Shown here piece after piece: positions 1 to 27,010 of a DNA stretch of 64,000 bases; positions within the stretch are counted from its first letter, which is position 1; every line of letters begins with the position of its first letter. Source of the DNA: Cladochytrium replicatum. Taxonomy: Eukaryota > Chytridiomycota > Chytridiomycetes > Cladochytriales > Cladochytriaceae. The notes beneath the pieces are model-generated. The model did not search any database and was not told the DNA's origin. It saw only the letters and a program-made list of their open reading frames with translations. Location of the stretch: assembly GCA_025526935.1 (NCBI GenBank), contig JAHLKD010000045.1:124001-188000 (forward strand). Direction: 5' to 3'. Made by a program: the position numbers and the translations under genes.

Positions 1-2394
1 ACCTTTCCCTCTCCTGTGGCTGCGGCAAAGACTGTGGAGGAATAAGGAGCCCACGCAACGTCTCCAACCGGAGAGTTGAGGTCAAAGGTCATGATCGGCT
101 TGGGAAGGTTATGATCCCACAATTTCACAGTCCAATCCGAAGAAGCGGAGAGTAGTATCTTTGTGTTGAACTTGTTGTATCGAACCATGTACACTCCCAT
201 TTGATGCCCCTTCATTATAATAAGCCAACATCACAAAATTCTTGGCCATCTCGGCTTTCTCACCTCAAAAGTCAACAAGTACTGGCTGTTATACGCCTTC
301 GAACACTTATGGATCTGACCTTCCTCAGTTCCAACCACAAAAACATCGTCTTCGGATTTGTTGAAGTCGAAACAAAGCCCGGACGCCTTGCCAAATAGCT
401 TTTCCTCTTCTTTCAAGATTGGTCGCTGGGTCGCTGCATTTGCAGAGCCCTCGGAAGACGAAGTGGAATCCGTTAGAGCAGGCTTCGCGGAAGCTAACAA
501 CGCTGACTGATGCTCGAGTTTAATAATATCCTGAAGTGTAAGTGGATAATGAGACTCAATTTGCATGTTAAGTTGAAAATCTACTCACGGTGTATACTAG
601 CTCGTTCTTGACCAGCGTCCACTGGGTCACACGTCCATCAGAAGAAACAGAAGAGAAGTTCATGTTCTCGTCGAGATCGTCTTTTTGCCAGCAGATCTAA
701 CGGAGGTGTGTAAATTATGTGTTGATTTCAATTGGCTGCACTGCAAACCTGCCAAACAGAATCCGTGTGTTTGCCAGCCAAAGACTTGAAGACGGGGTGG
801 TCGCTCTTTTTCTGCAGGTTGTACACGCACACCGAGCCGTCGAACAGTCCAACCGCAATCATTGATGGATGCTTATGGACGAATATTGATCAACATCTCT
901 TTATTATCTTCCGATCATTTTCTCACCTGCGGATGGATGTCGAGACACATCACTCCACTTTCAGTAACATACAGAAACTCCGGGTAGGACGGGTTCTTCA
1001 AAGTGAAGCAAGCGATCATTCCTGGACCTTGCTTGGAGAAATCATACGACCCGTATCCAATTGCAAACAGATCGCGGAATTTCGGGCTGCAACAGATTGC
1101 CGTAACCTGCTTGCGTTTCTCCTTTTCGCACACAAACTTCCAGAGCGGAAGCAATGTACCAGCTGTTAAAAATTTTAGGAAATGCTTTGATGCCGATGGT
1201 GACGTCTGTTCACTCACTCTTTCCCTCGCGCAACTCGTCTGAAGCGTCTTCCCAGTACTTGTAGTCCTCCGCAATGTCGTCAAAAGTGTTCTGATTCGCC
1301 ATTCTCTCTATGATCGTGATCGCCTTTCGAAGCTCCACAGATTTGTAGTAAACCTCTTCCCCACCGTGACCTTCAGACTGCAGCATGTTGTTTCCTTTGT
1401 CTTCTTCTTTATGTCCCTTTCCACCTGGCTGCGGTGCCTATATACAAATGATAAATAAAGAGCTTGAACATTAATTGCGAGAACCCACTTTGGACTTTTC
1501 TTTAGCAGCCTTTTCTTTGTGAAGTAGATCTTCCACATAAGCGTCGTAAATTGACCACTGGTTGACTGTCTCGGAGAAAGTGCGTGCAGGAGGTGGCTCC
1601 GTGTTGGTCGAGCGGTCCTATCGAGGTTATAGGTTATCATATACGGAGGCGATCATGCTTTTGCCGTGTTTACCCTGAATGGGTTGTTGATCGTCTGCGC
1701 TGCACGTTCACTGAAGTTGAACTGATTCCGTGTGGGATTCTTAGCAGGCTTCTTCTCCTCAGGTTCGGGAGCTTCCCCGCCTTCTGCTACCGGCTGCTCG
1801 CTCACGGCTGATGACGCAGCATCCTCTGTTGGAGCAGTGGTCGTCCCGGTAGACGCGGTTTGCTGAGTGTCATCACCGCCTTTGAAAACGAGATACCTAA
1901 TGAAGTTTTTTTAAACATGAAGTGACTTGTGTTTCGAGGATCACTTACCCGTCGAACTCAAAGTGCACGACGAGGTGGTCAACGTTGGGACTGGCTTTGA
2001 AAACACGATCTTTGTGGTTGTATCGTGCAATATTGTGCGGCGCGTGCGGGTTGTTTGCGTTCAAGATTCGTGTGAGCTCCTCGCCCAGATCTGCCTCGGT
2101 GAGAACAAGTTGTCCTACAGGCTTGAGTAGAACTTTCGGCTGTGTATGGTATGGGATGGTTGATCAATGCCAGATTTCGAGACAGAATTAGTTCGTACCG
2201 GTAGCCAGTCGTCGGATCCAGGAACTGCAGTGTGATCTGCTGGGCCATCGCCAGAAGCTGATTTCAGCGAGTTGGTCGAGAGTGTCCTATTTTGAAGCTG
2301 GTTCTCCACAGCCTGACGAGCGAATTAAATTTATTAGCGAAGTACCCCAAAGGATCGAATGATGCGGCACCTTTGTCTTTCTCTGTGAGCGCAT
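1..2394 (-). CDS. DNAI1: Axonemal outer-arm dynein intermediate chain 1 (partial, 3' end off window)
   Basis: WD-repeat intermediate chain of the outer dynein arm of the flagellar axoneme (Chlamydomonas IC78/ODA9 family). Seen: about ten exons joined by short GT-AG introns. A tentative first exon (2394-2371) is followed by 2312-2199 (ending DDWLP), 2139-1949 ([20 protein letters not shown]) and 1896-1674 ([18 protein letters not shown]); these joins keep frame. Then come the blocks [71 protein letters not shown] and [20 protein letters not shown], in the family's order. The final WD/C-terminal exon lies left of position 1. No stops or frameshifts were seen, so this copy is probably the functional one. 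The start exon is the weak point: the ATG at 2394 gives only eight residues before the first intron. It is divergent from DNAI2, its obligate partner. Confidence 0.9.
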
Positions 2395-2436
2395 TGATTT
2401 AGTCCGGGCTACCACGTGCCACGTGACAACGCGACC
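2395..2436. promoter_or_regulatory. Candidate bidirectional promoter between DNAI1 and DNAI2
   Basis: Only 42 bp separate the predicted DNAI1 ATG (minus, 2394-2392) and the DNAI2 ATG (plus, 2437-2439, in a strong gcgaccATGg context). Two CACGTG palindromes lie 7 bp apart at 2413-2418 and 2420-2425. GACAAC immediately follows; it fits the right half of an RFX X-box (RRNRAC), but no clean left half-site is present, so RFX control is only a suggestion. Transcription starts and core elements may lie inside the first exon or intron of either gene. The shared-promoter role is inferred from geometry. Confidence 0.5.
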
Positions 2437-4683
2437 ATGGAGATCGTGTATGTCTACCAGCGAAAGCACAAGGACTTTGGGAAGCAGACCAACCTGCGTG
2501 ACCAGCCGGCGGTACTTTGCCTAGATGAGCAGCCGGACCCTATGTACATGAGGAATTACGTGGAGCGCAACCCTTGTTCGGTCGAAGTACAATCCGTCCC
2601 AGAAAAATCCGAGCATGAGGCGAGTTCCAAATACTTGAGACGAATGAATCAGATAAATAAGCTCATGTTTCCAGGTCAACACTGAGTCTTTCAGCTTTCA
2701 GAATCGGGGAATCATGCATCTTCAAGGTGGATGGCCGAAAGATGTCGACCCAACAGACGTAGAACACACAATTCGATACCGCAAGAAGATTGAGAAAGAT
2801 GATGAGTATCTACGCGCGGTAAAAAACCTTGGCTCGGTGAGTTTACACAAACATTTTGTCATCCCAGCTGAAGATACAAACAACACACAAGGTCATGGAG
2901 CACTGCATTAAGCAGAACAATGCGATCGATATATACCAAGAGCACTTCGCCGAAGTCACGGATACACTTGAAGTTGAGCAGCCATGGGCCAAGTCATCGA
3001 ACGTGTACCGGTATGTTTCATCCTACACAAACATTTCAAAATCTTTGATTTAAAAATCCACAAACATAAGTGATCCGAATGAAGTAAAGCGTGCTGCTAC
3101 ACAAGTGTCGTGGTATCCTGATGACGGCAACAAGATTGCTGTCGCGTACTCTGTGCTCCAGTTCCAGCAAATGCCATCCAACATGTCGATGGACTCGTAC
3201 ATCTGGGACGTTGAGAATCCCAATGTGCCCGACCAAGTCCTGACCCCTACGAGTCCGATCGTCTCACTCAAGTACAACCCTAAGGATCCTCATGTGTTGG
3301 TCGGAGGATGCTACAACGGACTCCTGTGTATGTGTTAACGGCTAAAGCATATCTCTAATCTCATCGCTCTGTTTGATACTCCATAGCATACTGGGATGTT
3401 CGAAAAGGGTCCTATCCTGCAGATTCAACCCCAATCGAAAAGAGTCACAGAGATCCAGTGTACAATGTGGCATGGGTGCAGTCGAAATCGGGTAACTGTC
3501 ACCGCATAATCCGAAGTATTGACCATATTAATTCTTGAAAGGTGCCGAATTCTTTTCCGTATCTACGGACGGCCAGGTTCTTTGGTGGGACATCAGGAAA
3601 CTATCCGAGCCCACAGAATCCATGTTGATTGATCCGGAGAAGAATGGGACGGTGGTTGGTGGAACCGTTTTGGATTTCGAGACTACAATGGTGAGGATGC
3701 TACAGCCACGACTTAAAAATGACTGCATTTCTTACGAAGTGCAAACTCTCACTAGCCAACGAAGTTTATGGTCGGAGCGGAAAACGGGTCCGTCTTCATG
3801 TGCAATAAGAAAGCAAAAAACCCTGGAGAGAAGATCACGCATATCTATCCCGGTCATCATGGCCCTATTCGAGCACTGCAGGTATGTAAACGAACCAAAA
3901 AGGGTTAGAATTCGGTCTGACCTCTGTGATTGCGCAGAGGAACCCATTCTTTCCGAAAAACTTTTTGTCGGCTGGGGACTGGACGACAAAGGTCAGTCTC
4001 CGTTGAATAATTTCGTATTTTGATTTACAATGCGGTTAAGATCTGGGCGGAAGACGTCCGTTCACCAATCATGGGGACCAAATACTGCAATTCATATCTT
4101 ACAGATGCGTGCTGGAGCCCTACACGACCATCTGTCTTCTTCACGTCAAAGCTTGATGGGACAGTAGACATCTGGGATAACGTGTTCAAGCAGAACGATC
4201 CCACTCTGACCATTCAGGTGAAAACAATAAATTGCTTGAGATTCGAACTTAATTTGCCTATTGCAGGTCTGTGAAGCACCGCTGCACTGCATCAAAGCCC
4301 AAGAGCATGGAAAGTTGATTGCTGCTACCGCAAGAGACGGCTCCACTACGATCCTGGAACTTTCCGACAGTCTTTCAAAAATGCAACGGAACGAAAAGTC
4401 GATCTTTTCACAGGTAAATTGTTCGCTGCCAATATCCCCCTGCCAACGTGAACAATGTGCACAGATGCTAGAAAGGGAGGCAAAGAGGGAGAAAACACTC
4501 GAGGCTTCTGCAAGAGAGAAGCGAATCAAGGCGCAACAGAAACGTGCCAATTCAGCTACATTCAGGCCGACCGGATCAGCACTTGATGAGCTCATAAAGA
4601 GTGCTGAAGACGATTTCTTCCTCACTATCGAGCAGGCCGGCATTGATGTTGTTAGGCCCACTGCCAAGGCGGCAGAGAATTAG
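2437..4683 (+). CDS. DNAI2: Axonemal outer-arm dynein intermediate chain 2
   Basis: Second WD-repeat intermediate chain of the outer dynein arm (IC69/ODA6 family), which pairs with DNAI1 at the base of the arm. The start is the ATG at 2437 ([20 protein letters not shown]), matching the family N-terminus. About ten exons follow: [20 protein letters not shown], then [86 protein letters not shown]-type blade sequence, [20 protein letters not shown], and a charged coiled-coil tail ([20 protein letters not shown]). The stop TAG is at 4681. Introns are short with GT-AG ends and no frame breaks. It is convergent with PEX11, whose stop lies about 210 bp downstream. This looks like an intact gene. Confidence 0.93.
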
Positions 4684-5839: not shown

Positions 5840-6127
5840 TTTTCGTTTCGATGATGGAATGGAACGGAGAAGTGCAACGATGAAGTCACCCGCACGTGTT
5901 GGTAAGGGCACGTGTCGCTCACTTAAAAAAATTTCCCCCAAAACGACGCAAACCTGCGGAAGTCAGAAATAAAATCAACTCAATTATTAGAGCAAAATCA
6001 AATAATGGCAAATCATTTTCTAACACACACTATTCTTGCCAAAAACTGATTAGTGAAACACAAAAATGGCATTGCACGTGAACTGTTTCCTTCAACTTCA
6101 TACCCAACGCACACTCGAACATCAATT

Positions 6128-7170: not shown

Positions 7171-7523
7171 GGAGACGTTGCATGGGCTCCTTATTCCTCC
7201 ACAGTCTTTGCCGCAGCCACAGGAGAGGGACAGGTAGAAACGGGACACTTATGCATTTCTTTCTGTTAAAACTTGTGTCTCTATTCTTGTAGGTCTTTGT
7301 GTTTGACCTCGATATCAATAAGTACGAACCTATTTGCGAGCAACGAGTGGTGCGCAAGACCAGGCTGACCCACATTGCGTTCAATCCTTTCGAACCCATC
7401 ATTTTGGTGGGCGACGAGAAAGGAAACGTTTTAAGTCTGAAACTCAGTCCGAATCTTCGGAGAGTACCGACAGGAAGAGATGCGGACAACCAGTCTGATC
7501 GGCTTGAGCACATTCTTTTTTGA
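7171..7523 (+). pseudogene. DNAI1 3'-end duplicate (last two exons only)
   Basis: Reads [20 protein letters not shown], then a GT-AG intron (about 7234-7292), then [40 protein letters not shown] and [20 protein letters not shown] to a TGA at 7521-7523. This is the C-terminal WD blade and tail of DNAI1, the part that is off-window for the main gene. The first roughly 55 bp repeat the sequence at 12-65 on the opposite strand. Everything upstream of the junction near 7150-7170 belongs to the reverse-oriented amidohydrolase fragment, so the piece has no start or promoter of its own. The reading frame itself is undamaged, which suggests a fairly recent duplication or rearrangement. Confidence 0.85.
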
Positions 7524-7612
7524 TTGCGATGGGCAAGTCTGATTAGGTGTACTCATTGGTAAAGACTACACAAACTTTCACGAAGTTGATCCCAGAAATG
7601 AAATATATGATC

Positions 7613-8344
7613 CTAACTAACGGAGGGAATGTAGTTTTCTTTCAACCTCTTCTCCAAGACAAGTGCCATGGTCACTTTATCGTATACGACCCCTCCTTTG
7701 GTGATAGCTGCACGACTAATCGACTCACACACAAACCCGCACTTTTCAAGCACTCTCCTGCTTCCCGTGTTCAGCGCGAACAGCTCCGCTTCTAATTGCA
7801 CTGCCGCGGGCTCTTCACGATTGATGAACTCTACCAGCCATCGAACGCACTCCGTACCATAGCCTTTGCCCCACACGGATTCGGCAAACCAGAATCCAAG
7901 AGATACTGTAAGCAGACCGAGATCAGACTTGAATCTTGTGAGTGAACGGTTAAACGATAATAACACAGATAATTTTGATCAAATACCATACCCGTAGCCC
8001 ATTGACCCACACACTTTTCCGTCGATCTCGACGCATAAGCTTTCCAAAGAACGATCGTCTCCATCCAAAAATTTCTGCCTAGTCGCCTGATAAGATTGCG
8101 CAGCTGTGAAGTGCAGAGCATCCTGGATCGTATATCTTATGTTTTGAAGGTCCTTCGAGTTACAATGTGAGAGACAGATTTGTGTATCTTACGGGCTTGG
8201 AAAGTCATCCGTGAGGTATCGAGCGACCGATTGGTTGTTAGCAACTGTTTGCAATTGCTCGATGTCGCTGGTCGGATCGAAGAAGCGAATTGTGCAACGA
8301 TCTGTTTTTATCGGGAAAGTGTCCAAAGCTTCAATTCTGGGCAT
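7613..8344 (-). CDS. GNAT-family N-acetyltransferase (RimJ/RimL-like)
   Basis: Acetyl-CoA-dependent N-acetyltransferase of the Acetyltransf_3/RimJ-RimL type. The ATG at 8344 gives MPRIEALDTFPIKTDRCTIR, the usual TxRLxLR-type first strand. After an intron come YTIQDALHFTAAQSYQATRQ and VEIDGKVCGSMGYG. After a second intron come SLGFWFAESVWGKGYGTECV, where WGKGYGTE is the Q/RxxGxG/A acetyl-CoA loop, then LNTGSRRVLEKCGFV, the typical N-x-x-S-x-x-x-L-E-K-x-G-F motif. The stop is at 7613. The substrate cannot be read from sequence. Copy-A duplication debris lies immediately upstream, but this gene itself looks intact. Confidence 0.85.
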
Positions 8345-8525
8345 TGTGAGAACAGGATGCTGCTCATTCACGGCAATAGTACCGCTTTTGAAACTTTTCC
8401 TGTCCGTCCCACCTGCTATTTGCGGATGACACTTTAAATTTCTCACTTCGTTACGTTGTGCGTTGAATTGACTCGAATAGAACGACACCTCAACATGATT
8501 CCCTCAAAAAGATATCTATAAACCT

Positions 8526-10043
8526 CTATCCTTCTGTCCTAAACTCCGCGGCAGGCGCTACTCCCAGAAACCCAACACTTGACCGCCCAAGCACAATTTC
8601 CTTGAAATGATGTGAATTCTTGAACTCGGAGAACAGCCCAAACACCACATGAAGGGACTCGATATTTGATCTCGACTCCTTTGCTATCTTCCCTCCTCCA
8701 ACGCTGTCGTATACGGGTACATCCAGTATCGCAGTAACTATCCGTACTCGAGAAGCCAGCGACACTTCCAGACTCGTATCGGGAAGTACAATCTATACGC
8801 TCAGTCATCAAAGAGAAAGACCCATTTTTGGTGTGCGTCGGTTTATAGTTACCGAGAGCAATGCGTCCTCGACTTCGGGGTTCCAGACTTGCATCAGATC
8901 CTCCAGATTCGGCATGCACCGTGTAAACTCGACCCGCTGCTGCGGCAGGTGCGTGTCGTGGAGCTGCATGACGCTGCGGATCCATGTGTCCAGAGCGCGC
9001 GGGTTCTGAACGCGAGCGGCGGGATCGAGGGTGTGCACTGTTCGTGGGGCGGAGGTTTGTGCTTTACTTACGGCGCGGAGTTGGAGGTCGAGGACTTATA
9101 AGAAATCAGTTTGGAGACTTTATGGCGCTTCATGGATTACCTGAAGGGTCAGATTGCAACGTTGTGGGTTCGTCGAGAAACAGGAGGCCGAGATTGTCAG
9201 CAATGAGATCGGGTCGCGGAACCTAGTTGAGAAAAGCTATTGATATCTACTTGAATTTTCGTTGGGATTAAGATCGTACTTTGATAAAGGCGTCAATGTC
9301 GCCGATCGCTGGGATAAAGTCTGGGAGAAAGGGTCTGAGAATGGTGTCGAGGTCGGTTTCTTGTGGATGGTGCACATCAATGTACTGAAAGAGCTCCTGT
9401 ATGTCGTCACTTGGGACTGCATTCGAGGGCATTGTCCTGCGGTGCGATCAAGTTTGTAATACACCAATGAGGATTAGCCAGATGAATACCTATTTCGCCA
9501 TGGAGGTTCAGAGCCAAGTTCGTCGCCTTCGGACTCACTCGTGCCATCATTGCTACCGTAGCTTGACACATCGCGCATCACAGCTGGGCTCGAAGGAGCG
9601 GTCATCACAAGAGGCGATTGTGATGGCTGTGCTGATTTTGTACGCAGGGATGCAGGGAGCGATAGCTACACAAATCCAAATCATGAGCGCAAGTGCAATC
9701 ATTTTCAACTCTTGTTTTATTACTGCTGGAGAATTCGCTTCGTCTTCTGACTCTTCGATGCGGTTTGGTTGTTGCGGAGGAGAGTCGCCTTTGGCTAAAC
9801 AAGACAAATGTGGTGAATTACTGAACAAAAATAGAAATGCTAGGCTTCGTACAGAAATCAGGAGAGGAGTGGCCGTCGCTTTCTGGTTGATGTTCAGGAA
9901 CGAAAAAGTGGGTAACATCCACCTCTTCGTCAAAGTAGTTATTTGGGACGCTTTTGAATATCTAAGTGCGGATCAGCACCGAAACGAGGAGATGTTAACC
10001 ATGTTACCAGTGATTTGCTTTCGATACCAGAATCTGTGTTCAT
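8526..10043 (-). CDS. IFT46: Intraflagellar transport protein 46
   Basis: IFT-B complex subunit needed to carry outer dynein arms into the flagellum. Seen: an acidic, low-complexity N-terminus (NYFDEEVDVTHFFVPEHQPE, RIEESEDEANSPA) as in the family, then the core LFQYIDVHHPQETDLDTILR, PFLPDFIPAIGDIDAFIK, VPRPDLIADNLGLLFLDEPT, NPRALDTWIRSVMQLHDTHL, RCMPNLEDLMQVWNPEVEDA, VTAILDVPVYDS and LHVVFGLFSEFKNSHHFKEI. About nine exons; joins are supported by splice sites and continuous homology. The start ATG at 10043-10041 (MNTDSGIESKSL) is the most plausible but is the least certain part. An IFT gene that serves dynein-arm transport lying within 8 kb of the DNAI1/DNAI2 pair is notable. Confidence 0.9.
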
Positions 10044-10683
10044 TTGTGGCGACTCGTCATTTATCGCGACATTTACCAGATTTGGGAATGCCGTGTTAAA
10101 ACATCCACAAACAGCTCTACCAAAAACAAGAGGGAATAGTGTGAAGTAAGTTGATATTGGATGCTGAAGCACCTGAAGAATGAGACTACTGACTACAAAC
10201 TTGGGGAAAGAAACAGAAACCAACAATCAATCCTTGTTCGTCGAAATTGAAAATAAGTTTGACAGATTTAAAAAAAACGTCCAATACCTGCTCATCCACA
10301 AACCAAAAAAACAAAACTAAAGATCAATTGAACAAATGAACTAATAATATAGAGAAATTAAAAACAAAAAGAACGACAACGACAAATGCTGCATACACGC
10401 ATTCACATTGGACGCTTCTAAAATAACAATCAAACCACAAGCACAAGGTCAGGCTTTATAGAGTAGGTAGAGGCAAACAATGAAGAAAACGATCGCACAT
10501 TGCGCTGATAAGAGGAAAGAATCACCTGGCGTTGCGTATCGACAGGCGGGAGTGTTGTACGAGGTGAAAACAGAAAAGCTACCAACTGAATGTAAAGAAA
10601 CAGTCCTAGGAGGATTACGAACCAGCCGCATCCCGCCACAAAAATTCGACACACCTGCGCTGTCACCCGCGGTTCGATCGCAT
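10044..10683. other. Intergenic, AT-rich, no gene seen
   Basis: Between the IFT46 start and the stop of the next minus-strand gene. It is A-rich around 10,260-10,400 and would hold the IFT46 promoter and the neighbour's 3' UTR. Open frames here overlap the C-terminal end of the four-TM gene in other frames and look like shadows. Confidence 0.5.
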
Positions 10684-12112
10684 TCATTGGCCGAGAACGG
10701 TCGTGGCTCCCATCGACACCAAAGAGGCAAGCTTGCTTGTCTTGTTGGCAACGAAGAGAACGAGAGCAGCGATCCACCCAATAACGCTGAACAAGGCGAA
10801 GGCCAAGAATGAGCTGTTAAGCTTGCACGTATCGACCGACATGGCGTGCCCTGGCGAAATGACAACGGGGTAGTCATCGGTGATAGCGTCTCGCATAACA
10901 TCCCTGTAAGCCCTTACGGCTCCGCAGTTGTATGCTGTCACACCAGCAATTGTAGCGACAGCACACCAAATCCCGACCATGACCACAATCGAGAATGAGC
11001 CAAAAAGAGTCGCCCTGACGAGGTTGCGGGTTGCAGTGGGGCCAACAAAGGTGCGCCGGTTGAGACGGGCACGGCGGCGAATTGAGTGAACCGACACACC
11101 AAAGAGGGTGGTAGCAACAACAACAGATAGCGCAGAAACAACTGTGGTGAGAAGAATGCCGCCCGAGGCAGATGTCACGACATAAGAGGCTTCCGAGTCA
11201 GGAGGAGCGTAAGTTGCACGTGAGACGTGCGTCGAAGAAAGACCCAAAGCAACACACGAGCTGACAATCTATAAGGGCAAGGAACTAAGCAAAACAGCCA
11301 ATATATCGTCTAATCATGCAACTCACCAGACCGAAGTAGACAACTGTTAGAAGGTTGCGAGAGACCGGAGATTCCGAGAACGCACGGAGGTTGTTTGACT
11401 TCAAGTCGTTGCTCCCGTCTGGGCGTGCCCACTGCCAGCGTACGGAGGCGTTGCGAGCAAGGCCTCGTGACAGCGTGTTGTCCCACTTCTTGGAGGACTT
11501 CTTCTCATCGAAATCAGCGTCGTTGAGGTTCAAGGCGACAGACCTAATCCCACGCTTTTCGTCCGACGGTGTCGGTGACACGTCGCGGAGCTGGATGGCA
11601 TTGGCAAAGTGGGGCATTGGGTTCTCGAAGAAATCATCCTGATCGTCGAACTCGGGTTGAGGCTCGAGGGTACGGCGGGAACGGTAAGAGGTCGACTTGT
11701 CAATAGACGGGGGTCGCTTCTTCTCGTCTGAGGAGACGGCGGAATACGTTGAAGAGGTGATGTCAGCGTGCTTTGGTGAAGATGGGGCCTCAAAGATATC
11801 GTCCTCGTCTTCTTCGTTAAGAACTGGGACGAATGAGTGACGGGAGCGGGCGGGCTGAGGAGGGGTGATCTGGCGGGTGTTGTCTGGAAGTCGAGAATCT
11901 ATGATGTAGTCGGTGTGCTGAAGGACGGCGGGTTTCGAGGTGGTTGAGAGACGCTTTCCCTTTGCCTTTTCAGACTCGGAGCGCTGGATGAACAGGGATG
12001 TCCGCGAGGCATTGCTGTGCTGGGGAGGAGGTGACGATGACGACGAACCCGAAGGAGCCATAACAGGCACGAAGTCGAAGTCGTCGTCGGTGTGAGAGCT
12101 GTTTGCAGACAT
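10684..12112 (-). CDS. Four-TM membrane protein with long disordered N-terminus (orphan)
   Basis: Two exons (12112-11327 and 11268-10684) join in phase 0 across a GT-AG intron to give 456 residues. The first 235 or so are Ser/Pro/Asp-rich and predicted disordered (MSANSSHTDDDFDFVPVMAP; DEEDEDDIF; DDQDDFFENPMPHF). Four hydrophobic segments follow: NLLTVVYFGL plus IVSSCVALGL (TM1, split by the intron), GGILLTTVVSALSVVVATTL, SFSIVVMVGIWCAVATIAG, and FLAFALFSVIGWIAALVLFV. The order cytosolic tail plus four TMs resembles MARVEL-type proteins in topology, but I see no diagnostic motif, so no function is claimed. A single Cys lies in each of the last two loops. The reading frame is intact. Confidence 0.8.
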
Positions 12113-12349
12113 TGCAGAGCAGAACCGGCAGGGGTTGCAGGGTATTGAGGGGGATTAGAGCTGGTTGACAAGACAGATCGGAATGACGGAAAGGCTGGGC
12201 GGGGTGGGTGGGTGGTCGCTGAAGAAAGCACAGCCACACAGAGCAATTAGGACTGGTGGCAGTGCGGGTATGATGGTAGATATCGATTGACGTTTGGGTA
12301 CACCAAATCGACTCCCGCCTCGCTGGTGGCTGTTGACGAGTCCAGAAGT

Positions 12350-24725: not shown

Positions 24726-27010
24726 TCACTCTCTCGAGCTCGCCGTGGGGAGTAATCTAAGTGATGGATCAGTCTCTATATGAAATTTAATATAAGCTTT
24801 ATTTATACTTGTTTCTCCATGAGCTGATAGAAATAGATTTGGCCGTGCCGCATTCCGTGCCCGGGAAGACACGGTTGAGGTCATTCCCGTCTGAGAACTC
24901 GCGCGTGAAGTGGAGGTAGCCGGGGACGTTGACGCAAGGGTAGGCGGAGGAATAAGGAGCCCATGCAACGTCTCCAACGGGAGAGTTGAGGTCAAAGGTC
25001 ATGATCGGTTTGGGAAGGTTTTGGGAAGGTTATGGTCCCACAATATCAAAGTCCAATCCGAAGAAGCGAGAGTAATATCTCCGGGTTGAACTTGTTGTTT
25101 CGAACCACGTGCACTCCCATTTGATGCCCCTTCACAATAATAAGCCAAAATCACACAATTCGTGGCCATCTCGGCTTTCTCACCTCAAAAGTCAACAGGT
25201 ACTATCCGCCTTCGAACACTTATGGGTCTGACCTTCCTCAGTTCCAACCACAAAAACATCGTCTTCGGATTTGTTGAAGTCGAAAACAAAGCCCAGACGC
25301 CTTGCCAAATAGCTTTTCTTCACCTTTCAAGATTAGTCGCTGGGTCGGTGCATTTGCAGAGCCCTCGGGAGACAAATTGGAATCCGCTGGAGCAGGCTTC
25401 GCAGAAGCTAACGACGCTAACTGATGCTCGAGTTTAATAACATCCTGAAGTGTAAGTGGATAATGAGACTCAATTTTTGCATCTTAAGTGGCAAATCTAC
25501 TCACGGTGTACACTAGCTCCTTCTTGACCAGCGTCCAATGAGTCACGCGTCCATCGGAAGAAACAGAAGAGAAGTTCATGTTCTCGTCGAGATCGTCTTC
25601 TTTTTGCCAGCAGATCTAACAGAGGTGTGTAAGTTATGTGTTGATTTCAATTGGCAGCAGCGCAAACCTGCCAAACCAGAATCAGTGTGTTTGCCAGCCA
25701 AAGACTTGATGATGGGGTGGTCGCTCTTTTTTTGTAGGTTGTACACGCACACCGAGCCGTCGAACAGTCCAACCGCAATCATTGATGGATGCTTATGGAC
25801 GAATATTGATCAACATCTCTTTATTATATTCCGATTCTCTCACCTGCGGATGGATATCGAGACACATCACTCCACTTTCAGTAACATACAGAAACTCCGG
25901 GTAGGACGGGTTCTTCAAAGTGAAGCAAGCGATCATTCCTGGACCTTGCTTGGAGAAATCATACGACCCGCATCCAATTGCAAACAGATCGCGGAATTTC
26001 GGGCTGCAACAGATTGCCGTATCCTGCTTGTGTTTCTCTTTTTCGTACACAAACTTCCAGAGCGGAAGCAATGTACCAGCTGTTAAAAATTTTATGAAAT
26101 GCTTTGATGCCGATGGTGACGTCTGTTCACTCACTCTTTCCCTCGCGTAACACCCCTGAAGCGTCTTCCCAGTACTTGTAGTCCTCCGCAATGTCGTCAA
26201 AAGTGTCCTGATTCGCCATTCTCTCTATGATCGTGATCGCCTTTCGAAGCTCTACAGATTTGTAGTACACCTCTTCCCCACCGTGACCTTCAGACTGCAG
26301 CATGTTGTTTCCTTTGTCTTCTTCTTTATCCATTTCCACCTGGCTGCGGTGCCTATATACAAATGATAAACAAAGAGCTTGAATTATTGCGAGAACAAAC
26401 TTTGGAATTTTCTTTAGCAGCCTTTTCTTTGTGAAGTAGATCTTCCACATAAGCGTCATAAATTGACCACTGGTTGACTATATCTCGGAGAAAGTGCGTG
26501 CATGAGGTGGCTCCGTGTCGGTCGAGCGGTCCTATCGAGGTTTTACGTTGTCATATACGGAAGCAATCATGCTTTTGCCTTGTTTACCCTGAGTGGGTTT
26601 TGTTGATCGTCTGCACTGCACGTTCACTGAAGTTGAATTGATTCGTGTGGGATTCTTAACAGGCTTCTTCTCCTCAGGTTCGGGAGCTTCCCCGCCTTCT
26701 GCAACCGGCGGCTCGCTCGCGGCTGATGATGCTGCATCTTCTGTGGGAGTAGTAGTCGTCCAGGTGGACCCGGTTTGCTGAGTGTCATCCCCGCCTTTGA
26801 AAACGAGATATATAATGAAGTTTATTAAACATTATGTGACTTGCGTTTCGAGGATAGCTTCAAAGTGCAAGACGAGGTGGTGAACGTTGGGACTGGCTTT
26901 GAAAACACGATCTTTGTGGTTGTATCGTACAATATTGTGCGGCGCGTGCGGGTTGTTTGCGTTCAAGATTCGTGTGTTTCTCATCCAGTTCTGCCTCGGT
27001 GAGAACAAAT
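24726..27010 (-). pseudogene. DNAI1 degenerate copy B with AstE/aspartoacylase-like tail
   Basis: Near-duplicate of the DNAI1 segment at 12-2,103, same strand. It keeps [53 protein letters not shown] and [19 protein letters not shown]. Damage: one inserted G turns HTDSVWQV into HTDSGLAG and shifts the frame near 25,685; about 10 bp including a splice donor are missing near 26,850; the first exons are absent (homology to copy A ends near 27,008). At 24,945 the frame switches from DNAI1 (APYSS) to YPCVNVPGYLHFTREFSDGN followed by DLNRVFPGTECGTAKSI, which matches the zinc-carboxypeptidase-like succinylglutamate desuccinylase/aspartoacylase motif (DLNRxFPG). So the locus is a chimeric pseudogene. 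Confidence 0.85.

What the first reader, a model, noticed from the sequence alone, without database searches (positions are those of the whole stretch)
2371..2439. DNAI1 and DNAI2 start head to head with about 42 bp between ATGs
The two outer-arm dynein intermediate chains form an obligate 1:1 pair. Here they are divergent neighbours sharing a 42-bp spacer with two CACGTG boxes. Such a gap leaves no room for two independent promoters, so one shared, bidirectional element would lock their dosage.
Basis: partly seen in the sequence, partly recalled or inferred. Interest (0 to 1): 0.75.

Follow-up and report, generated by a model that had tools for sequence, protein, structure and literature searches.

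The report
Two flagellar dynein genes, head-to-head
In a swimming-spore fungus, the genes for two partner subunits of the flagellar motor start back to back only 42 bases apart, and a second copy of the pair in the same genome is dead in both genes; it is a striking but probably local example of a known kind of gene arrangement.

Summary
Confirmed. The window, from the chytrid Cladochytrium replicatum, holds DNAI1 (minus strand, ATG at 2394) and DNAI2 (plus strand, ATG at 2437), with 42 bp (2395-2436) between the start codons and CACGTG at 2413-2418 and 2420-2425. Both starts are supported by conserved N-termini. The surroundings hold no TATA box and no RFX site.

The best reading is a compact shared promoter; 'locks their dosage' is not shown. 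The arrangement is not general: in 12 of 12 other zoosporic fungi that could be checked (8 cleanly) the two genes sit on different contigs. The nearest relative, Nowakowskiella, could not be checked. The pair is older than a duplication inside this genome: contig C78 carries a decayed copy in the same order (DNAI1-DNAI2-PEX11) in which both genes are pseudogenes and the spacer plus both 5' ends are missing.

CACGTG is not specific to this pair: 26 close CACGTG pairs genome-wide against 24 for a control pattern, and boxes within 60 bp of 2 of 13 proteasome gene starts. One of the 26 does lie just upstream of the outer-arm beta heavy chain gene, which is suggestive. A new member of a known kind, of moderate interest.

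The parts
2395..2436 (.). 42-bp spacer between the two start codons, 60% GC; candidate core of a bidirectional promoter
   Evidence: sequence; no TATAAA/TATAWA, GTTRCY or X-box in 2301-2520 on either strand
2413..2418 (.). CACGTG box 1
2420..2425 (.). CACGTG box 2, one base from box 1
   Evidence: the 14-mer CCACGTGCCACGTG occurs at 2 places in the genome on the plus strand
2371..2394 (-). DNAI1 exon 1 (MRSQRKTK), followed by a 58-nt intron with donor GTGCCG
   Evidence: conserved N-terminus
3..2394 (-). DNAI1, exons 1-11 of 12 (last exon lies left of the window, in L003)
   Evidence: best solved relative 9fqr DNAI1, E 3.2e-200
2437..4683 (+). DNAI2, 11 exons
   Evidence: with one intron corrected; best solved relative 8j07 DNAI2, E 2.8e-214, from residue 1
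1621..3447 (.). stretch that has no counterpart in the decayed second copy on contig C78 (both 5' ends and the spacer)
   Evidence: blastn of L072 against the region: L072 903 pairs with window 1620 and L072 930 with window 3448

Best explanation
DNAI1 and DNAI2, two partner intermediate chains of outer-arm dynein, are divergent neighbours in Cladochytrium replicatum. The 42-bp spacer with its two palindromic CACGTG boxes is most likely the core of one compact bidirectional promoter: a bHLH-type factor on the boxes keeps one stretch open from which transcription fires both ways when flagella are built, with starts in or just beyond the spacer. Shown: gene identities, start codons, spacing, boxes, the decayed second copy. 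Inferred: factor binding, shared firing, co-expression. The arrangement arose in this lineage before a duplication; the duplicate pair has lost both 5' ends together with the spacer, and both of its genes are dead.
For: Exact 42-bp gap with well-supported starts. Two CACGTG in 42 bp, about 2-3e-5 by chance at background. A close CACGTG pair also at -53/-45 of the outer-arm beta heavy chain start. At least 15 HLH-domain matches in the genome, so candidate binding factors exist. Same divergent order in the C78 relic.
Against: No expression or transcript-start data. Not linked in 12 of 12 other species checked. CACGTG pairs are at background genome-wide, 26 against 24, and single boxes lie near 2 of 13 proteasome starts. 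The outer-arm gamma-type heavy chain on C14 has no CACGTG in 300 bp.
Confidence: 0.55

Rival explanations
1. Two separate promoters that overlap: each gene starts transcription inside the partner's first exon or intron, so the transcripts overlap at their heads and may interfere with each other rather than fire together.
For: 42 bp leaves very short leaders if both starts lie in the spacer (sequence). Sharing factors was not noticeably tied to co-expression of neighbours in yeasts (PMC2045684, abstract).
Against: The only CACGTG boxes lie between the two start codons, where they serve both directions equally.
Confidence: 0.25
2. Accident: a rearrangement brought the genes together and nothing keeps them so; boxes are an ordinary promoter element of one or both genes.
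For: Not linked in 12 of 12 other species. Another tight divergent pair of unlike genes, DRC2/NDUFS4 with 108 bp between starts, turned up among the starts examined. The region is prone to rearrangement.
Against: A chance meeting of exactly two partner subunits is unlikely a priori; the order predates a duplication that left 70-86% DNA identity.
Confidence: 0.17
3. DNAI1 really starts elsewhere, so the 42-bp gap is not its promoter.
For: Exon 1 has only 8 codons, its donor GTGCCG is weak, and the public model splices it differently (P0001).
Against: The N-terminal motif is shared with 7 of 8 other chytrid proteins read, and the public model begins with the same residues.
Confidence: 0.03

Closest known systems
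Divergent gene pairs with bidirectional promoters, e.g. histone H2A/H2B, HSP60/HSP10, TAP1/LMP2 (named in passages of PMC2871058)
   Same: Two genes of linked function, opposite strands, short spacer, plausible shared element.
   Different: Here an axonemal dynein pair, 42 bp between start codons, and not found linked in other species checked; co-expression unknown.
RFX / X-box control of ciliary genes in animals and choanoflagellates (passages of PMC10530576)
   Same: The idea of a common cis element for flagellar genes.
   Different: No RFX monomer or X-box in 2301-2520. The same paper found no enriched motif, RFX or other, in ciliome promoters of the chytrid Spizellomyces punctatus.
CACGTG (E-box) elements bound by bHLH factors (family knowledge, recalled)
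   Same: Exact CACGTG, twice; HLH-domain genes exist in the genome.
   Different: Binding untested; boxes also near housekeeping genes.

Membership tests
Head-to-head gene pair with a bidirectional promoter | adjacent genes on opposite strands with 5' ends facing and less than 1 kb apart | tested here: met
   42 bp between start codons; transcript starts themselves not known
Head-to-head gene pair with a bidirectional promoter | one stretch drives both genes | not testable with these tools
   needs reporters or CAGE
Head-to-head gene pair with a bidirectional promoter | co-expression of the two genes | not testable with these tools
   no expression data at hand
Head-to-head gene pair with a bidirectional promoter | conserved linkage in relatives (common, not strictly defining) | tested here: not met
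   different contigs in 12 of 12 species, 8 clean; same order untestable
DNAI1 (IC1) orthologue | best full-length match to axonemal intermediate chain 1 | tested here: met
   9fqr/8j07 DNAI1 best, E 3.2e-200 and 1.9e-198
DNAI2 (IC2) orthologue | best full-length match to axonemal intermediate chain 2 | tested here: met
   8j07/9fqr DNAI2 best, E 2.8e-214 and 4.1e-213
CACGTG element specific to flagellar genes | enriched near flagellar starts over other starts | tested here: inconclusive
   within 60 bp of start: 3 of 6 axonemal spacers against 2 of 15 control starts, p 0.11; 0.17 with duplicates merged
RFX-controlled ciliary promoter | GTTRCY or GTNRCC N0-3 RGYAAC near the start | tested here: not met
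   none in 2301-2520 on either strand

The most novel reading that the evidence does not exclude
The paired CACGTG is a shared on-switch for outer-arm dynein genes in this chytrid (DNAI1, DNAI2 and the beta heavy chain each have one close to the ATG), and the single spacer makes the two intermediate chains one genetic unit, so that after duplication the spare pair was lost as a whole, keeping the subunits at one working copy each. It would be a first candidate flagellar promoter element in fungi.
Probability: 0.2. Interest if true: 0.65.

Novelty: new member of a known kind. Interest (0 to 1): 0.42.

Why it matters
How chytrid fungi switch on flagellar genes is unknown; a published scan of ciliome promoters in one chytrid found no enriched motif (PMC10530576, passages). 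A 42-bp spacer that has to serve two outer-arm subunits is about the smallest place to look for such an element, and the dead second copy on C78 offers a natural comparison for how partner genes are lost after duplication.

Tried and rejected
Paired CACGTG as a mark of flagellar genes: 26 places with 0-8 bp between boxes against 24 for the reversed pattern. Open frames around the 24 loci (25 places) other than ours were ranked and read by eye. Frames of five of these loci were then matched to Pfam as SART-1, HMGL-like (best NCBIfam match homocitrate synthase, below its cut-off), ABC transporter, sugar transporter and LMW phosphatase; one locus, L010, is the beta heavy chain. The other 18 loci were not identified by a family search, and I did not establish how many of the boxes lie in promoters (one, L005, lies in an open frame that looks coding).

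Longer word CACGTGAYAMCGCG, prompted by the second 14-mer site: 5 places including ours against 0 for its reversal; the others were not followed up.

A home-made coding-strand HMM to count tight divergent pairs put known genes on the wrong strand and was dropped as a gene finder; its codon scores were used only to rank frames. Instead I looked for opposite frames close upstream of 22 other gene starts; in two of these (L063, L065) the ATG I had chosen runs into stops, leaving 20. One clear tight pair: DRC2/NDUFS4, 108 bp by my count; one doubtful (L062).

Mended count: one search compared 3 of 6 axonemal spacers with 2 of 17 control starts (p 0.09). Two proteasome starts were not established, so the counts given are 2 of 13 proteasome and 0 of 2 cytoplasmic dynein starts, p 0.11, or 0.17 with duplicates merged. 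L063 also has a box 437 bp before its proteasome domain. More proteasome-family exons were listed than the 18 loci fetched, which stand for 15 genes.

Heavy chains on C7 and C20, first taken as axonemal, are cytoplasmic dynein 1 (the C20 copy tested; C7 is its 85% identical duplicate) and were counted as controls. TPH-family loci, Tctex genes (no DNA given) and the DNAH10-type gene on C2 were left out of the counts because no start was established.

Linkage rows. Clean, one protein and one contig on both sides: Borealophlyctis, Phlyctochytrium arcticum, Polychytrium, Gorgonomyces, Paraphysoderma, Sorochytrium, Blastocladiella emersonii, Irineochytrium (its DNAI2 contig is only 6.4 kb). Less clean, clusters or two contigs: Chytridium lagenaria, Spizellomyces palustris, Kappamyces, Synchytrium endobioticum. 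Dropped because rows could not be matched one to one or were partial: Geranomyces, Batrachochytrium, Neocallimastix, Rhizophlyctis, Quaeritorhiza, Globomyces, Gaertneriomyces, Polyrhizophydium, Allomyces. Only the best 120 rows of each search were seen.

Papers: no paper held all of 'bidirectional promoter', 'dynein intermediate chain' and 'head-to-head'; some searches were seen as listings only, apart from PMC2871058 and PMC10530576 (passages) and PMC2045684 and PMC4820839 (abstracts).

Full report
What is there. The window is G000:C45:124001-188000 of a 50.5-Mb assembly in 198 contigs, and the DNAI2 protein on a contig of the same length is labelled Cladochytrium replicatum. With the window and 5 kb to its left I built spliced models. 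DNAI1 runs on the minus strand from ATG 2394 in 12 exons; DNAI2 runs on the plus strand from ATG 2437 to 4683 in 11 exons, after correcting one intron that the script ranked wrongly. DNAI2 matches human DNAI2 from residue 1 (E 2.8e-214); DNAI1 matches axonemal DNAI1 (E 3.2e-200; the match begins near residue 38). The starts are sound: the DNAI2 start [10 protein letters not shown] is shared with Nowakowskiella, MRSQRKTK resembles the start of 7 of 8 other chytrid proteins read, and the public proteins of this genome begin with the same residues. My models keep stretches near both N-termini that relatives also have and the public models drop.

The spacer. 2395-2436 is 42 bp, 60% GC, with two CACGTG boxes one base apart; 2301-2520 holds no TATA box and no RFX site. 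Two boxes in 42 bp would be expected by chance at about 2-3e-5, without allowing for a general preference near starts.

Is CACGTG special to flagellar genes? Close pairs (0-8 bp apart) occur at 26 places genome-wide against 24 for the reversed pattern, so as a class they are at background. One of them lies at -53/-45 of the ATG of a dynein heavy chain gene on C11, whose protein fits the outer-arm beta chain best (7kzm, E 1.9e-52). If all 26 pairs were promoter-proximal among 10,000-20,000 genes (an assumed number), 0.007-0.013 would be expected at the five other axonemal starts examined; this is after the fact and only suggestive. A single box lies at -18 of the DRC1 start, which I set by eye. 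None lies within 300 bp of the starts of DRC2, the gamma/DNAH5-type heavy chain (C14) or the DNAH2-type heavy chain (C154). Controls: within 60 bp of 2 of 13 proteasome starts, these two being duplicates of each other, and of 0 of 2 cytoplasmic dynein starts. The comparison of 3 of 6 with 2 of 15 gives p 0.11, or 0.17 with duplicates merged. CACGTG is thus probably a general promoter-proximal element here, with flagellar preference unproven. The genome has at least 15 matches to the HLH domain.

Is the pair conserved? The protein searches give the contig length for each hit. In 12 of 12 species where both genes could be matched they lie on contigs of different length; 8 of these are clean. In seven of the 120 rows (P0004, P0008, P0010, P0015, P0019, P0022, P0037) DNAI1 carries NDK and Dpy-30 domains. 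In the three sequences read (P0008, P0019, P0022) an extra stretch precedes DNAI1; in P0008 it is NDK and Dpy-30 by Pfam. In such species the stretch upstream of the DNAI1 part is not DNAI2. For Nowakowskiella, the closest DNAI2 by identity (82%), no DNAI1 appears among the 120 rows listed in each, so the same order is untested. For Cladochytrium tenue a partial DNAI1 is listed but no DNAI2.

A second copy in the same genome. Contig C78 carries, in the same order and orientation, pieces of DNAI1, then DNAI2, then the end of the next gene, PEX11 (PEX11 named). The alignment jumps from window 1620 to 3448 with 26 bp between: both 5' ends and the whole spacer are missing. Frame-breaking indels number 12 in the 2 DNAI1 exons aligned and 16 in the 6 DNAI2 exons aligned. 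So the divergent pair existed before this duplication, and both members of the spare pair are dead. Whether the loss of the shared 5' region came first cannot be told. Seven proteasome gene pairs compared are 76-84% identical in DNA and the cytoplasmic dynein pair 85%, which suggests a whole-genome or hybrid duplication; this was not tested further.

How it most likely works. The spacer acts as one compact two-way promoter with the palindromic boxes near its middle as the likely factor site. That both transcripts start in or near the spacer is inferred from the geometry; that they fire together is by analogy with yeast divergent pairs (PMC4820839, abstract), against which stands a five-yeast study in which sharing factors was not noticeably associated with co-expression of neighbours (PMC2045684, abstract). 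Overlapping but separate promoters remain possible, as does plain accident.

Verdict. It is a new member of a known kind, with a neat twist in the jointly dead duplicate.

Noticed in passing
L003 1-5065 (window -4999 to 65) and window 7171-12236: An inverted segmental copy of 5,067 bp at 99.4% identity, including the 3' end of DNAI1.
   Followed up: partly
window 24946-27008: A 5'-truncated second DNAI1 copy, 91.7% identical to window 36-2108 over 2,095 bp, with internal stops and no match to the spacer or the 5' part of DNAI2; the 30-bp overlap of its edge with that of the inverted copy looks like an inversion with staggered breaks.
   Followed up: partly
genome-wide: C10/C26, C44/C9, C52/C39, C47/C6, C101/C9, C7/C20, C27/C55: Proteasome genes come in diverged pairs (76-84% DNA identity), as does cytoplasmic dynein (C7/C20, 85%): likely whole-genome or hybrid duplication.
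   Followed up: partly
proteins P0004, P0008, P0010, P0015, P0019, P0022, P0037: In several other chytrids DNAI1 is annotated as one protein with an NDK and Dpy-30 part, N-terminal in P0008: a gene fusion or fused gene models.
   Followed up: partly
L037 about 1041-1152: Another tight head-to-head pair: DRC2 (by family match) and NDUFS4, 108 bp between starts, no CACGTG.
   Followed up: partly
L010 1460-1514: CACGTGTGCACGTG (gene strand) just upstream of the outer-arm beta heavy chain start.
   Followed up: yes
window 5893-5914: Two CACGTG boxes upstream of PEX11, the next gene after DNAI2.
   Followed up: no
L019, L020, L021, L023: CACGTGAYAMCGCG, the right half of the spacer, occurs at 5 places including ours against 0 for its reversal.
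   Followed up: no
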